A DNA stretch of 32,872 nucleotides, from the IMG/VR virus record IMGVR_UViG_3300042292_000593, positions 1-32,872 of that record; one strand, 5' to 3'. A model generated the notes under the pieces. It searched no databases, was not told the DNA's origin, and worked only from the letters and a program-made list of their open reading frames with translations. The stretch is from a virus. The position numbers and the translations under genes were made by a program. Positions 3,302-29,955 of this stretch are shown here, one piece after another (the stretch's first letter is position 1; every line of letters starts with the position of its first letter).

Positions 3302-4309
3302 TTAACTAGGCTCAACAATTTTTGCATTGAAGCGTGAGCGCAGCTCTTCCACAGTGGGATCAGCAGCCGCGCATAAAGCAGGATCAGCCAGTATCTCCCT
3401 AGAGCTGTACACTCCTGGCCCTGACACGCCGTTAGCGACTAGCTTGCCGTCAATCCTGTACTGTGGTGGGCCATCATCATTGACCGTCATAGGCCACGGT
3501 ACAAGGTCCGAATGAAGGACATGATTATCACAGCCTGATAGTTGCCAGTTATACGGGATGTCCGCACCATGAACCATGCAGCGCCATGTGCTGTTTATTG
3601 TTGGATCAGCATAAGCGCATGTTCGGCAATTCACATTCTTAGTGCATTGCGTCTGGTGGCAGAACTCCGTCATGGGACACATTTTGCACACATAGTAGTC
3701 ACCTGTTGCAGCTATCGGCTCAGGCATCCTATCAGTCATAGCGATCCGCTGGCCACGCTCGATAGCGCTGACAGCCGCCTCCCGGTTATACATAACTATT
3801 TCTGTGTGTAGCCGGTCGTCATCTTTGCAAACAGCGTAATACAACGCACGATCCAGCTTTAGTCCGTGCATGTACACCTGCATCTGTGTGTAATGTATGG
3901 GCTTAGCAAGCTGTACTCCCTTTTTCTCTAGCTCATTAAATGACTTTTTATTGTGCGTCTTAACTTCCAACAGCACCTTCGCTAGTTCATGTCCCGGTAA
4001 GCCTGTAATCACCCCATCTACACTACCGGATACATGCTGGCCGAAGTCAACGACTTGTTGCTGCTGCGTCACTTTTGCGCCGATCAATCCTAGGTACCGG
4101 ATAGCGGATGCTTCCTCGTCCTGGCCACGCTTAAACAGTCTTAGTAGCCTCCCGGGGAATTGCTGAGTGACCGCCCAATGAAAGGCCAGCCACAGGTAAC
4201 GGTCACAGGGATGGCCGAGCGTAGAGCCACCTATATGTGGTCTAGGATTCTCTACCGCTTGTTCTAGCACGTGATCTATTTGCTCTTGTAGGTTCATGTC
4301 CATGTCCAT
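3302..4309 (-). CDS. Cas4-like PD-(D/E)XK exonuclease with Fe-S cysteines
   Basis: About 335 residues from ATG 4309. It has the RecB/Cas4 nuclease signature: GSVDG near residue 96 (Asp98), LEVKT with Glu115 and Lys117, and QMQVY near 142. Cys35 in GHPCDR together with C208-x2-C211-x5-C217 matches the four-cysteine 4Fe-4S pattern of Cas4/AddB nucleases. A second cysteine group (222, 228, 231, 244, 260) may bind zinc. The likely role is DNA end resection with the neighbouring Sak4-like ATPase and DUF669-like protein in single-strand annealing recombination. The frame is open to ATG 4336, but that start lies in front of an intrinsic terminator hairpin. Known relatives begin close to the 4297-4309 methionines, though these lack a Shine-Dalgarno. 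The start is therefore uncertain. Confidence 0.8.
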   Translation of the reverse strand: MDMDMNLQEQIDHVLEQAVENPRPHIGGSTLGHPCDRYLWLAFHWAVTQQFPGRLLRLFKRGQDEEASAIRYLGLIGAKVTQQQQVVDFGQHVSGSVDGVITGLPGHELAKVLLEVKTHNKKSFNELEKKGVQLAKPIHYTQMQVYMHGLKLDRALYYAVCKDDDRLHTEIVMYNREAAVSAIERGQRIAMTDRMPEPIAATGDYYVCKMCPMTEFCHQTQCTKNVNCRTCAYADPTINSTWRCMVHGADIPYNWQLSGCDNHVLHSDLVPWPMTVNDDGPPQYRIDGKLVANGVSGPGVYSSREILADPALCAAADPTVEELRSRFNAKIVEPS

Positions 4310-7920: not shown

Positions 7921-8391
7921 TTAAATAACGTGATATACAGACTTAGCGGCTAGATATGCTTGTCCAGCTTTCTCGGCTGTAGCAAATGTTCCTATATGAA
8001 TCAACTTGCTGTCAACTGTGATTTGCGCAACATATTTTTTGCGAAACATTGAGACGCCAATATAACCAGAGGTATTATCTTTTCGTATACTTTGATTCCA
8101 TAAGTTTTGCTGATTGGTAGCTTCGCGTAAGTTACATATCCTATTATCTGATCTAATTCTATTGATATGGTCAATCTGTTTTTCTGGAAAGCGACCATAA
8201 ACATACAGAAACGCCAATCTGTGTGCTTTATATCGTTTATTGTGTATCTTAATCAGTATATATCCATTTTCCTTTTTGCATCCAGCAATGCTTCCTGCTT
8301 TTACGCTGTTACGTTTAGAAGTCAACCATGTAAACAGGCCGGTTTCAGTATCGTAGTGCAGTAATTCTTTGAGCTGAGCTTGTGTAAGCAT
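7921..8391 (-). CDS. HNH homing endonuclease with AP2 domain (copy 1)
   Basis: This 156-residue protein has an N-terminal segment MLTQAQLKEL, then an HNH_3-type nuclease core (IDHINRIRSDNRICNLREAT, residues 73-92, with His75 and the Asn/His finger). A C-terminal AP2-like DNA-binding domain follows (about 100-150, SGYIGVSMFRKKYVAQITVD). Such free-standing enzymes cut at recombination-prone sites and copy themselves into phages lacking them. It is the only minus-strand gene right of 6277, enclosed by a terminator and its own promoter and structured leader. AAGGAG lies 7 bases before the ATG. It is a diverged paralogue of the gene at 13281. Confidence 0.9.
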   Translation of the reverse strand: MLTQAQLKELLHYDTETGLFTWLTSKRNSVKAGSIAGCKKENGYILIKIHNKRYKAHRLAFLYVYGRFPEKQIDHINRIRSDNRICNLREATNQQNLWNQSIRKDNTSGYIGVSMFRKKYVAQITVDSKLIHIGTFATAEKAGQAYLAAKSVYHVI

Positions 8392-8428
8392 ACGTGATCT
8401 CCTTGGTTATTGGCGGTTCATAGAGGAA

Positions 8429-8479
8429 GTGCGACTGTTAGTGAACCAGACTAACGAGGTTTCGAACCCTCTGTCGCAC
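8429..8479 (-). ncRNA. Three-way-junction RNA element upstream of HNH copy 1
   Basis: On the minus strand three perfect helices form a compact junction. The closing stem is GTGCGAC/GTCGCAC (8479-8473 with 8435-8429). Hairpin 1 is GAGG/CCTC with an 8-nt loop. Hairpin 2 is GTTAGT/ACTAAC with loop CTGGTTC. Single A residues link the closing stem to each hairpin and none separates the hairpins. It begins at the predicted +1 of the extended -10 promoter and ends 37 nt before the HNH ATG. The same layout precedes HNH copy 2. Confidence 0.75.
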
Positions 8480-8485
8480 GCATTC

Positions 8486-8494
8486 ATTATAACA
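8486..8494 (-). promoter_or_regulatory. Extended -10 promoter of HNH cassette 1
   Basis: The minus strand reads TGTTATAAT, a consensus extended -10 (TG-N-TATAAT); no good -35 is present, as allowed for this class. The predicted +1 is 8479, the first base of the three-way junction. Confidence 0.7.
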
Positions 8495-8496
8495 TA

Positions 8497-8528
8497 GTTC
8501 GATCCGGGGAGTGATCCCCGGATCGAAC
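8497..8528. repeat. Perfect 14-bp hairpin upstream of HNH cassette 1
   Basis: Arms GTTCGATCCGGGGA (8497-8510) and 8515-8528 are exact reverse complements around a GTGA loop. No U-tract follows on either strand. It separates the HNH cassette from the hairpin-rich region and may insulate or mark the cassette edge. Confidence 0.7.
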
Positions 8529-12904: not shown

Positions 12905-13193
12905 AGGTAGCAAAATAGAAGCAAATGCTGTTAGACGGCCACCTAATGCTGGCAAAGGCAGAGTCAAGGGTGTACCGAATAAAACCACAGCAGACGTGAG
13001 AAACATGCTGATAGCGTCTCTCGATGCTGTTGGTGGTCAAGCTTATCTCGAAAAGCAAGCAATAGATAATCCCAAGGCTTATTTATCGCTTGTCTCTAAG
13101 GTCATACCTTCTGAGGTAAAGAGTCAAGTAACTGGCTCAGATGGCGGCCCAGTTCAACATTCTGTGACTGTTAAGTTCAATGATGTAAAATAG
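12897..13193 (+). CDS. Probable small terminase subunit
   Basis: Start ATG 12897 (MGEGSKIEAN...) gives 98 residues; the frame is open further upstream but only within the previous gene. The sequence GRVKGVPNKTTADVRNMLIASL, then VGGQAYLEKQA and NPKAYLSLVSKVIP, is the plan of small DNA-recognition proteins encoded before PBSX-type large terminases, with a basic N-terminal arm and a helical core. It would recognise the packaging site and load the large subunit. Its last bases contain the promoter of the intruding HNH cassette, which separates it from the large subunit gene. Confidence 0.7.
   Translation: MGEGSKIEANAVRRPPNAGKGRVKGVPNKTTADVRNMLIASLDAVGGQAYLEKQAIDNPKAYLSLVSKVIPSEVKSQVTGSDGGPVQHSVTVKFNDVK
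13164..13191 (+). promoter_or_regulatory. Promoter of HNH cassette 2 inside the terminase gene end
   Basis: A -35-like GTGACT (13164-13169) and a -10 TAAAAT (13186-13191) are 16 bases apart. The predicted +1 at 13198 coincides within one base with the first nucleotide of the three-way junction at 13199. The site lies in the last codons and stop region of the small terminase gene. Confidence 0.6.
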
Positions 13194-13198
13194 ATGTA

Positions 13199-13248
13199 TG
13201 CGAGACAGGGAGGCATCCCGACTGTATCGGTTAACAGTCAGTCTCGCA
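13199..13248 (+). ncRNA. Three-way-junction RNA element upstream of HNH copy 2
   Basis: The closing stem is TGCGAGAC/GTCTCGCA (13199-13206 with 13241-13248). Hairpin 1 is GGGA/TCCC with loop GGCA (13208-13219). Hairpin 2 is GACTGT/ACAGTC with an 8-nt loop (13220-13239). Single A linkers are at 13207 and 13240. Five T follow at 13249-13253, so the fold could also stop transcription and release a roughly 50-nt RNA. The HNH ATG is 32 nt downstream. The layout matches the element at 8429-8479. Confidence 0.75.
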
Positions 13249-13280
13249 TTTTTATAGCCGACCTTAAACCGGAGGTAGAT

Positions 13281-13763
13281 ATGATTACGCAAGCAAGATT
13301 AAAAGAGCTTTTTGATTACGACGCTTTAACTGGTGATTTGATCAACAGAAAGCAAAGAGGCAATAGTCCAGCAGGGAAAGCTGCGTATAGAGTGATGTGG
13401 AATGGATACAAAAGAATTACTGTCGAGTACAAGCAATATGCAGCGCACCGTTTAATTTGGATGCTTCACTATGGCGAATTTCCTAAGCATGACATTGATC
13501 ACATTAACGGGATCAGAGGTGACAACAGGATAGAAAATCTGCGTGAAGCAACAAGAAGCCAAAATATGCAAAATGAAAAAAAAGCACGATCCCCAAATAA
13601 AGTTGGTCTGTTAGGTGTGTGTGCCCACGGTTCAAATTATAGAGCGCAAATTACCATCGATGGCAAATGCGTAAGGCTTGGTACGCATAAAACACCAGAA
13701 AAAGCGCATGAGGCTTATTTGCAAGCAAAAAAAGCATTGCATCCATATCAGACTATTGCATGA
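13281..13763 (+). CDS. HNH homing endonuclease with AP2 domain (copy 2)
   Basis: Start ATG 13281 follows GGAGGTAGAT at ideal spacing; the frame opens earlier (13194) but through the structured leader. The 160-residue protein starts MITQARLKEL and carries the HNH core DIDHINGIRGDNRIENLREA (residues 71-90). Its C-terminal AP2-like domain is NYRAQITIDGKCVRLGTHKT plus a helix. It shares the full layout and much sequence with the copy at 7921-8391. It sits between the terminase subunit genes, a classical homing target. Its stop overlaps the large-terminase start (ATGA), so it is wired into that gene's translation. Confidence 0.9.
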   Translation: MITQARLKELFDYDALTGDLINRKQRGNSPAGKAAYRVMWNGYKRITVEYKQYAAHRLIWMLHYGEFPKHDIDHINGIRGDNRIENLREATRSQNMQNEKKARSPNKVGLLGVCAHGSNYRAQITIDGKCVRLGTHKTPEKAHEAYLQAKKALHPYQTIA

Positions 13764-28051: not shown

Positions 28052-29955
28052 TGCCAACAACCACTGAACTCGCAATACTTGGACCGGGCATCTCAGGCCG
28101 GTCCAAGGCTATTTCAGCACAAAAACGGCTTAACCTTTACATGGAGGTCAGGCGCGATAATGATAAATCCGATCTTGTCGCTTACGGTACGCCGGGACTC
28201 TCTCCTTTTGTTGATTTCGGTAATCAGCCAGCTAGGGGCATGTGGTGGTTTGAAGCAATCAACACCCTGTTTATCGTTGCTTATGACCAATTGCTTGAGG
28301 TCCGTGGTGATGGCAGCTATATCGAGCGAGGAACGCTAGAGACAACGGCTGGCAACGTCAGTATGGCCGACAACGGCTTGCAGCTAATGATTGTGGATGG
28401 GGTAACTGGTTACATCTACACTCCGACAACAGGCGACCTTGCATACAGCCGCACAGGTACGCTAGTCACGGTTACTGAGACGCTACACACTCGCAAGGAG
28501 AATGAGATTGTAAACATCGAGGGTGATGCTAACATCCCATCCGGTGCTTACATTGTCTTCAATCCTCCATTTGTCATTGGGACTAATGCCCTCGTTATCG
28601 GTACTGAGTACGTCATCACGGTCCCCGGTACAGCTAACTGGGTGGGATTGGGTGCTGATTCAACCGCTTACGGTACGGTCTTTACTGCAACCAATACCAC
28701 CACCACAGGTATCGGTACGTGTGTACCGGCTAATACATGGACCTTTTACACTGCCGTATCAGGTGCGGCTACGGGTGACATTCGAGTCGTTAACACCTTC
28801 CGCAAAATTACTAATGCTTACACTGGTATTGATTTTCCTGTTGCTAATACCGTAGCGTTCATTGACAGTTATTTTGTCGTCAACGTAACTGGCACCAAAC
28901 AATTCTGGCTATCGGGTAATTACGATGGGCTCTACTGGGACCCCTTACAGTATGCTAGCAAAGAGGCGTACACTGACAACCTTGAGGCGGTTACAGTCGA
29001 TAACGGCAATATCGTTCTTTTAGGCACTATTTCACAAGAGTATTGGCAAAATAATGGCGGCTTTCCGTTCCCGTTCGCAAGGATATCAGGATCACCGACC
29101 GACGTCGGTGTTGTTGCTCGCTGGTCTATGGCTCGCTGTGGTGGGATGCTTTTCTATCTTGGTCGCACCCGCCGTGGCAGCTTATCGGTTTTCAGCGTAC
29201 AGAATTACGCCCCTACTGTCGTTTCTACCCCGGATTTAGATTACCTCTTTAGCCAGTATCAGAATCCCGGCGATGCTGTTGCGTTTGGGTATCGTCAAAA
29301 CGGGCATGAGTTCTATCAGATTAGCTTCCAGACTGAGGGGAAGACATGGCTATATGATGCAAGCACTCAGGCATGGTCCGAACTATCATCCAATGGTGGC
29401 CGTCACTACGCTCAATGGGGAGCGCAGTTCAAGAATGAGATTGTAGTTAGTGATTATCGAACTGGTAAACTGTATAAACTGGACGCTAACATTTATACTG
29501 ATGCTGGCGATACTATTGTTAGAGAGCTGATTACACCACACACATTCTCTACCAGCACGTTCAACAGACTTCACATCTACCGCCTACGGCTCGATATGGA
29601 GCAGGGTGTAGGTCTACCCCTATCCGAGTATCAATCATCTCAAGACGCGCTCGCTACTAACTTCGATCAAGCGCTGCTAACAGAGGATAATGCTATCATT
29701 CTCCTTGAATCTGATAGCACTGTTATCAGAGAGCGAACCAATCCTCAGATTATGCTACAGGTCAGCCGTGATGGTGGTTATACCTACGGAACAGAAATGT
29801 GGATCAGGATGGGTGCAATCGGTCAGTACCTCCGCAGAGCAGAATGGAGACGGTTAGGTGTCTCTCGGTCTTATGTGTTCAAGTTCCGTATTACTGACCC
29901 GATAAAGGTCGTTATCATCGGAGCAGCGGCTTACATTGCACAGGCGGCGAAGTAA
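28051..29955 (+). CDS. P22 gp10-like DNA stabilisation / tail-hub protein
   Basis: A 634-residue protein; P22 gp10 has 472. The N terminus (AILGPGISGRSKAISAQKRLNLYMEV reads in two parts) and the segments YGTPGLSPFV and WWFEAINTLFIVAYDQLLEV fit the Phage_stabilise family, which plugs the gp4 ring after packaging. About residues 174-226 are an insert (VIGTEYVITVPGTANWVGLG, then GTVFTATN and a Thr/Gly run). The insert resembles a short module common in phage structural proteins and explains part of the extra length. It is joined to its neighbours by one-base overlaps. Confidence 0.85.
   Translation: MPTTTELAILGPGISGRSKAISAQKRLNLYMEVRRDNDKSDLVAYGTPGLSPFVDFGNQPARGMWWFEAINTLFIVAYDQLLEVRGDGSYIERGTLETTAGNVSMADNGLQLMIVDGVTGYIYTPTTGDLAYSRTGTLVTVTETLHTRKENEIVNIEGDANIPSGAYIVFNPPFVIGTNALVIGTEYVITVPGTANWVGLGADSTAYGTVFTATNTTTTGIGTCVPANTWTFYTAVSGAATGDIRVVNTFRKITNAYTGIDFPVANTVAFIDSYFVVNVTGTKQFWLSGNYDGLYWDPLQYASKEAYTDNLEAVTVDNGNIVLLGTISQEYWQNNGGFPFPFARISGSPTDVGVVARWSMARCGGMLFYLGRTRRGSLSVFSVQNYAPTVVSTPDLDYLFSQYQNPGDAVAFGYRQNGHEFYQISFQTEGKTWLYDASTQAWSELSSNGGRHYAQWGAQFKNEIVVSDYRTGKLYKLDANIYTDAGDTIVRELITPHTFSTSTFNRLHIYRLRLDMEQGVGLPLSEYQSSQDALATNFDQALLTEDNAIILLESDSTVIRERTNPQIMLQVSRDGGYTYGTEMWIRMGAIGQYLRRAEWRRLGVSRSYVFKFRITDPIKVVIIGAAAYIAQAAK

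What the first reader, a model, noticed from the sequence alone, without database searches (positions are those of the whole stretch)
8391..8494. Two diverged HNH-AP2 genes share a 5' three-way-junction RNA with compensatory changes
Upstream of this HNH gene (minus strand) and of the copy at 13281 lies the same fold: closing stem, A, 4-bp hairpin, 6-bp hairpin, A, closing stem. No base separates the two hairpins. The gap to the ATG is 37 nt here and 32 nt there. Helix 2 differs at three of six pairs (GTTAGT/ACTAAC versus GACTGT/ACAGTC), helix 1 at two of four and the closing stem at two, yet every pair is kept. Both junctions start at the predicted +1. Seen: sequences, pairing and distances. 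Inferred: a conserved RNA element travels with the homing endonuclease, as 5' cap, attenuator or protein-binding site. I do not recognise it as a described RNA class.
Basis: partly seen in the sequence, partly recalled or inferred. Interest (0 to 1): 0.9.

Follow-up and report, generated by a model that had tools for sequence, protein, structure and literature searches.

The report
Pseudoknotted RNA leader for homing endonucleases
Several kinds of selfish DNA-cutting genes in phages carry the same small folded RNA at the very start of their messages, a three-armed junction whose one arm tip also pairs with the stretch just before the ribosome site; the shape is kept while the letters change, and it matches no catalogued RNA family.

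Summary
Both window elements fold as described, and shuffled copies of the window gave no match in 200 trials. Related elements occur in other phage contigs, before HNH-AP2 genes, a second HNH family and GIY-YIG homing endonucleases. One lies in a cultured phage, Proteus phage vB_PmiM_ZX7, found by a covariance model not trained on it. Sixteen distinct sequences keep 98% of pairs while 13 of 16 pairs change on both sides (covariation 0.686 against 0.223 shuffled, 0/500).

It ends 15-22 nt (mostly 19-20) before the start codon. A -10 box usually ends 3-7 nt before the fold, so it likely begins at +1. In a relative without the endonuclease, terS and terL overlap and the element is absent, so promoter, RNA and gene travel together.

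No Rfam match was found. Function is inferred: most likely a compact leader that protects the 5' end and stops at the edge of the initiating ribosome; translational control is the main rival.

The parts
8486..8491 (-). -10 box TATAAT with extended -10 (TGT), ends 6 nt before the RNA element
8429..8479 (-). RNA element 1: P1 GTGCGAC/GTCGCAC, linker A, P2 GAGG/CCTC (loop GTTCGAAA), P3 GTTAGT/ACTAAC (loop CTGGTTC), linker A
8415..8419 (-). 3' pseudoknot strand GAACC, pairs with GGTTC of the P3 loop (8443-8447)
8399..8404 (-). Shine-Dalgarno AAGGAG
   Evidence: sequence
7921..8391 (-). HNH_3 endonuclease ORF, 156 aa, phrog_99
13186..13191 (+). -10 box TAAAAT, overlaps the end of the terS ORF and ends 6 nt before the RNA element
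13198..13249 (+). RNA element 2: P1 ATGCGAGAC/GTCTCGCAT, linker A, P2 GGGA/TCCC (loop GGCA), P3 GACTGT/ACAGTC (loop ATCGGTTA), linker A
13255..13261 (+). 3' pseudoknot strand TAGCCGA, pairs with TCGGTTA of the P3 loop (13227-13233)
13261..13276 (+). possible P4 hairpin ACCTT-AAACCG-GAGGT covering the Shine-Dalgarno GGAGG (13271-13275); not significant over the whole set
13281..13763 (+). HNH_3 + AP2-like endonuclease ORF, 160 aa, between terS and terL

Best explanation
The element is a conserved cis-acting 5' leader RNA that belongs to self-contained homing-endonuclease cassettes (promoter, leader RNA, endonuclease gene). Shown by sequence: the three-way junction, its covariation, a pseudoknot from the P3 loop to the 3' tail, fixed spacing to a -10 box on one side and to the start codon on the other, recurrence before unrelated endonuclease families, and absence from an unoccupied site. 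Inferred: RNA polymerase starts at or within a few nt of P1, the nascent RNA locks into one compact fold that buries its 5' end, and the fold stops about 19-20 nt before the start codon, at the upstream edge of where a 30S subunit sits. The leader would make the message of an inserted endonuclease independent of its site: 5' end shielded from end-dependent decay and the ribosome site kept apart from whatever lies upstream, with expression probably modest. Sequence in the loops is free, so shape rather than a bound ligand seems to be selected.
For: Structure and covariation: 16 distinct elements, 98.0% of cells paired, 13/16 pairs with double changes, score 0.686 against 0.223 +/- 0.024 (0/500 shuffles) and at most 0.111 when slid. 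Pseudoknot: own-loop/own-tail sum 63.5 against a maximum of 58.5 in 200,000 permutations; it is also present in L413, L414, L436 and Proteus phage ZX7, which were retrieved without using it. The model search hit ZX7 before its GIY-YIG gene at E = 1.7e-7 although ZX7 was not in the model. A -10 box with 5-6 of 6 matches ends 3-7 nt before P1 in 15 of 19 elements. Distance from pseudoknot end to start codon 15-22 nt, mostly 19-20. The unoccupied terS-terL site of L411 lacks the element, and the only model hit of that contig is before a GIY-YIG gene. An HNH gene coupled to the upstream gene in L421 lacks it. Intrinsic terminators lie just upstream of two GIY-YIG copies.
Against: No transcript, half-life or translation data exist. 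A possible P4 hairpin over the Shine-Dalgarno in most copies would argue for translational control, although it is not significant overall (Fisher P = 0.10). One copy precedes a helicase gene (L126) and a possible one a tail-type gene (L140), so the link to endonucleases is not absolute. Some -10 boxes are weak (L118, L119, L145, L140). Elements from one phage group are related, so the counts are not independent.
Confidence: 0.45

Rival explanations
1. Translational gate: the pseudoknot holds an adjacent anti-Shine-Dalgarno strand in place so that a short hairpin (P4) hides the ribosome site, keeping endonuclease synthesis low or delayed, possibly relieved or tightened by a phage, host or endonuclease protein that binds the junction.
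For: A 3-8 bp helix over the Shine-Dalgarno begins right after the pseudoknot strand in most copies, with covarying strands (ACCTT/GAGGT, AGCCT/AGGCT, TGACCTTT/GAAGGTTG, CTCTA/TGGAG; CCTT/AAGG in ZX7). Known precedent: T4 I-TevI, I-TevII, I-TevIII, segB and Aeh1 mobE use hairpins over the ribosome site (PMC2988022).
Against: P4 is not significant against shuffles (Fisher P = 0.10) and is missing in element 1. In I-TevI the late promoter is placed to exclude the inhibitory hairpin; here the promoter is placed to include the whole fold. No long conserved unpaired sequence for a protein to read except the two junction A residues.
Confidence: 0.33
2. Ligand-sensing riboswitch with the three-way junction as binding pocket.
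For: A junction with an invariant C-G closing pair, two A linkers and a pseudoknot near the ribosome site is a common riboswitch plan (general knowledge); invariant pairs.
Against: Almost no conserved unpaired nucleotides; downstream genes are nucleases, not metabolic or transport genes; no Rfam match even at E up to 10.
Confidence: 0.05
3. Promoter-proximal RNA that modifies RNA polymerase (like the put antiterminator RNA of phage HK022) so that transcripts read through terminators after the endonuclease.
For: The element begins at or near +1, and cassettes sit in front of late genes such as terL.
Against: The fold differs from put RNA as I know it; the element keeps fixed spacing to the start codon, which an antiterminator would not need; at window position 8479 it drives a gene that is not followed by a long co-oriented operon.
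Confidence: 0.07
4. No RNA function: shared ancestry of a DNA cassette plus inverted repeats that act in DNA (operator or cutting site).
For: Elements of one phage group are related; some P2 loops are DNA palindromes (TTCGAA, TTGCAA, ATGCAT).
Against: Stems change letters with compensation far above shuffled and slid controls; linkers of fixed length; pseudoknot pairing; two of five 8-nt loops are self-complementary only if G-U counts.
Confidence: 0.04

Closest known systems
Leader hairpins of T4-type homing endonucleases (I-TevI/II/III, segB, Aeh1 mobE; PMC2988022)
   Same: RNA structure in the leader of phage homing-endonuclease genes, linked to a dedicated promoter
   Different: Those are simple hairpins that cover the ribosome site and, for I-TevI, are left out of the productive late transcript; here a junction plus pseudoknot is included from about +1 and stops before the ribosome site
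seg43(25) leader hairpin of Aeromonas phage 25 (PMC2988022)
   Same: Stable structure directly upstream of, not over, the ribosome site of a homing endonuclease
   Different: Described as one predicted hairpin in one case; no junction or pseudoknot in the text read
Gene 32 leader pseudoknot of T4/T2/RB69 (PMC3014915)
   Same: Pseudoknot in a phage 5' leader upstream of the ribosome site
   Different: Simple pseudoknot about 67 nt before the start codon, bound by gp32; no three-way junction; not linked to endonucleases
Flaviviral exoribonuclease-resistant RNA (xrRNA)
   Same: Topology: three-way junction whose 3' hairpin loop pairs with the sequence just 3' of the closing stem (general knowledge)
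   Different: xrRNA needs RNA 5' of the junction threaded through a ring and conserved junction nucleotides; here the fold begins at or near +1 and the linkers are single A residues; no Rfam relation

Membership tests
Any Rfam 15 family | Score at or above the curated gathering cut-off (or at least a weak match) | tested here: not met
   No match at gathering in the whole window, none at E up to 10 for element 2 or the L145 element
RBS-sequestering leader hairpins of T4-type homing endonucleases | Stable helix covering the Shine-Dalgarno | tested here: inconclusive
   Short P4 helix in most copies, not significant against shuffles
RBS-sequestering leader hairpins of T4-type homing endonucleases | Productive promoter placed so that its transcript lacks the inhibitory structure | tested here: not met
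   Predicted -10 boxes place +1 at or just before the 5' end of the fold; the start sites themselves are unmapped
Flaviviral-type xrRNA | Three-way junction plus pseudoknot from the 3' hairpin loop to the 3' flank | tested here: met
Flaviviral-type xrRNA | 5' strand outside the junction threaded through a ring, with conserved junction nucleotides | tested here: not met
   Predicted transcripts have few or no nucleotides 5' of P1
Flaviviral-type xrRNA | Resistance to a 5'-3' exoribonuclease | not testable with these tools
   needs an in vitro digestion assay
T4 gene 32 type autogenous pseudoknot | Simple pseudoknot before the gene of the protein that binds it | tested here: not met
   The fold contains a three-way junction; the downstream proteins share no single domain (the L413 GIY-YIG product ends without the AP2-like repeat)
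HEARO or other HNH-associated OMEGA-type RNA | Match to the Rfam model | tested here: not met
   No Rfam match; proteins are HNH_3, phrog_953 and phrog_314 types

The most novel reading that the evidence does not exclude
A new mobile class of structured RNA: a 5'-terminal ring-like fold (three-way junction plus pseudoknot) that caps phage messages against decay, is passed between unrelated homing endonucleases (HNH and GIY-YIG), and may dimerise through the P2 loop, because all five distinct 8-nt P2 loops hold a self-complementary hexamer.
Probability: 0.2. Interest if true: 0.88.

Novelty: new variant of a known kind. Interest (0 to 1): 0.77.

Why it matters
Free-standing homing endonucleases must be expressed wherever they land without harming the phage; how they achieve this outside T4-type phages is mostly unknown. 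Here different endonuclease families share one RNA module with its own promoter, which suggests that expression modules are traded among selfish genes. Because a cultured phage (Proteus phage vB_PmiM_ZX7) carries a copy, the structure and its effect can be tested directly with reporter fusions. If the fold protects 5' ends, it would be a short, sequence-tolerant natural mRNA stabiliser for bacteria.

Tried and rejected
Intrinsic terminator/attenuator: a U-run after P1 is present only in some copies (window element 2, L115), so rejected as a general function. tRNA T-arm likeness of GTTCGAAA: rejected because other copies have TTGCAA, ATGCAT, GTGCAT or a GGCA tetraloop; ARAGORN finds no tRNA. 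General feature of HNH-AP2 genes: rejected; about 40 other HNH-AP2 viral contigs have no model hit, 14 of 15 isolate phages none, and many of those genes overlap the preceding gene. AP2 domain as common reader of the RNA: weakened, since the L413 product ends without it and L126 is a helicase. Relaxed descriptor without A linkers: useless in GC-rich DNA, real and reversed sequences gave equal counts. Pattern GACAGRGR...: only the known window-type copies were confirmed by the model. Bacterial genomes: no hit in 399 genomes of one order and 201 of one family, with the tool's warning that an empty answer is weak. L407, L408 and L144: coding-region chance matches. L004 has a similar but looser arrangement (T linker, about 7 nt between hairpins, loop CTAACT with AGTTAG downstream) seen by eye, no model hit: left undecided. 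P4 hairpin: tested, not significant.

Full report
Observation. ViennaRNA predicts both junctions without constraint. A strict descriptor of the junction (single A linkers, no linker between hairpins, perfect stems) finds these two in the window and none in 200 dinucleotide shuffles. Both lie 31-37 nt before HNH_3 genes whose proteins are 48% identical. The window is an IMG/VR virus record.

More members. Fetching relatives of the HNH proteins gave a contig (L009) with the same junction before its own HNH gene and a second one before another HNH gene in the terS-terL gap. Pattern scans of viral contigs based mainly on the P2 hairpin brought further copies. The strict descriptor and covariance models then showed elements before HNH-AP2 genes (L115, L119, L120, L436), before an HNH gene of another family, phrog_953 (L118), and before GIY-YIG genes (L120, L145, L410-L421). 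One copy precedes a helicase gene (L126); a possible one precedes a tail-type gene in a GC-rich phage (L140). L140 and L126 were found by patterns covering part of the element, so their scores are biased upward.

Independent test. A model built from 12 sequences, none of them from this phage, hit the cultured Proteus phage vB_PmiM_ZX7 at 4059-4108, E = 1.7e-7, directly before a GIY-YIG gene between terS and terL. The sequence shows every feature: TATAAT, P1 ATGCGGC/GCCGCAT, linker A, P2 ACGG/CCGT with loop ATTGCAAG, P3 GGCGG/CCGCC, linker A, pseudoknot TGAAT/ATTCA, start codon 32 nt after P1. The deposited gene start (record position 4058) lies at the first base of the RNA, so that annotated start is probably wrong. 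Fourteen other isolate phages with HNH or GIY-YIG genes or a related terminase had no hit.

Covariation. On 16 distinct sequences, 98.0% of cells form standard pairs, 13 of 16 pairs change on both sides, and the covariation score is 0.686 against 0.223 +/- 0.024 in shuffles (0/500) and at most 0.111 when partners are slid (earlier sets). The alignment was fitted to the structure, which leans towards it, and related sequences are not independent; the contrast with the slid controls is nevertheless very large.

Pseudoknot. Reading the tails showed that the P3 loop is complementary to a stretch 5-9 nt after P1: GGTTC/GAACC, TCGGTTA/TAGCCGA, TAGTC/GACTA, TTCGCA/TGCGAA, TTCGTAA/TTACGAA, CGCTAG/CTAGCG, TCACGC/GCGTGA, GTAGTGA/TCACTAC, ACCCA/TGGGT, TGAAT/ATTCA. 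Permuting loops and tails among lineages never reaches the observed sum in 200,000 trials; against shuffled tails the combined P is 7e-7 for ten representatives. L413, L414, L436 and ZX7 were retrieved without use of the tail and still show it. L140 is weakest (4 bp).

Position. In 15 of 19 elements a hexamer with at least 5 of 6 matches to TATAAT ends 3-7 nt before P1, several with an extended -10 TG, so transcription probably starts at or next to the first base of P1. The pseudoknot ends 15-22 nt before the start codon, 19-20 in most; from general knowledge this is about the upstream edge of the mRNA covered by an initiating 30S subunit. Intrinsic terminators lie just upstream of the GIY-YIG cassettes in L145 and L412.

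Mobility. In L411 the terS stop and terL start overlap and no element is present there, while the occupied sites of the window, L124 and L115 hold promoter, RNA and HNH gene between them. Thus the RNA moves with, or arises with, the endonuclease gene. An HNH gene in L421 that overlaps the preceding gene has no element, which suggests that the RNA is used only by cassettes with their own promoter. The L009 copy in the terS-terL gap sits before a frameshifted HNH frame.

Function. The fold, not the sequence, is conserved: apart from the two A linkers and fixed C-G/G-C pairs at the junction there is little invariant sequence, which speaks against a ligand pocket. The fixed spacing on both sides suggests a leader that packs everything upstream of the ribosome into one unit. 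I favour protection of the 5' end plus isolation of the ribosome site (0.45). A short helix over the Shine-Dalgarno is seen in most copies but fails a shuffle test (P = 0.10), so translational gating, well known for T4-type endonucleases (PMC2988022), is the main rival (0.33). Self-complementary hexamers in all five distinct 8-nt P2 loops (chance about 4e-7 if the loops were independent and the test specified beforehand, which it was not) raise the possibility of dimerisation.

Known kinds. Rfam has no match. Literature searches in the open library found hairpins for T-even endonucleases, including one upstream of but not over the ribosome site (seg43(25)), and the gene 32 pseudoknot, but no three-way-junction leader of homing endonucleases. 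Most subscription papers and all preprints were not searchable. The topology resembles viral xrRNA, but its threaded 5' strand is missing.

Noticed in passing
window 8497-8528, minus strand: A perfect 14-bp inverted repeat (GTTCGATCCGGGGA-TCAC-TCCCCGGATCGAAC) lies just upstream of the -10 box of element 1, overlapping the -35 region; possible operator or terminator.
   Followed up: no
MZ424863.1 4058-4142 (L403 905-989): The annotated start of the ZX7 homing endonuclease lies at the first base of the RNA element; the likely start is the ATG at 4142.
   Followed up: partly
L009 6008-6429: The HNH gene behind the second L009 element is split by a frameshift while its RNA leader is intact; sequencing error or decay of the endonuclease.
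   Followed up: no
L120 6017-6640 and L145 12093-12758: GIY-YIG endonucleases fused to an AP2-like C-terminal repeat otherwise typical of HNH-AP2 proteins (PHROG matches to both types).
   Followed up: partly
L004 2955-3000: A looser arrangement of two hairpins in a closing stem with possible loop-tail pairing (CTAACT/AGTTAG) before an HNH-AP2 gene; may be a distant relative of the element.
   Followed up: partly
L025, upstream of the HNH gene at 29361 (minus strand), and L443 upstream of 301: A long, very stable hairpin directly before the Shine-Dalgarno of HNH genes in Salmonella phages Skate and LPSTLL; a different leader structure for the same gene type.
   Followed up: no
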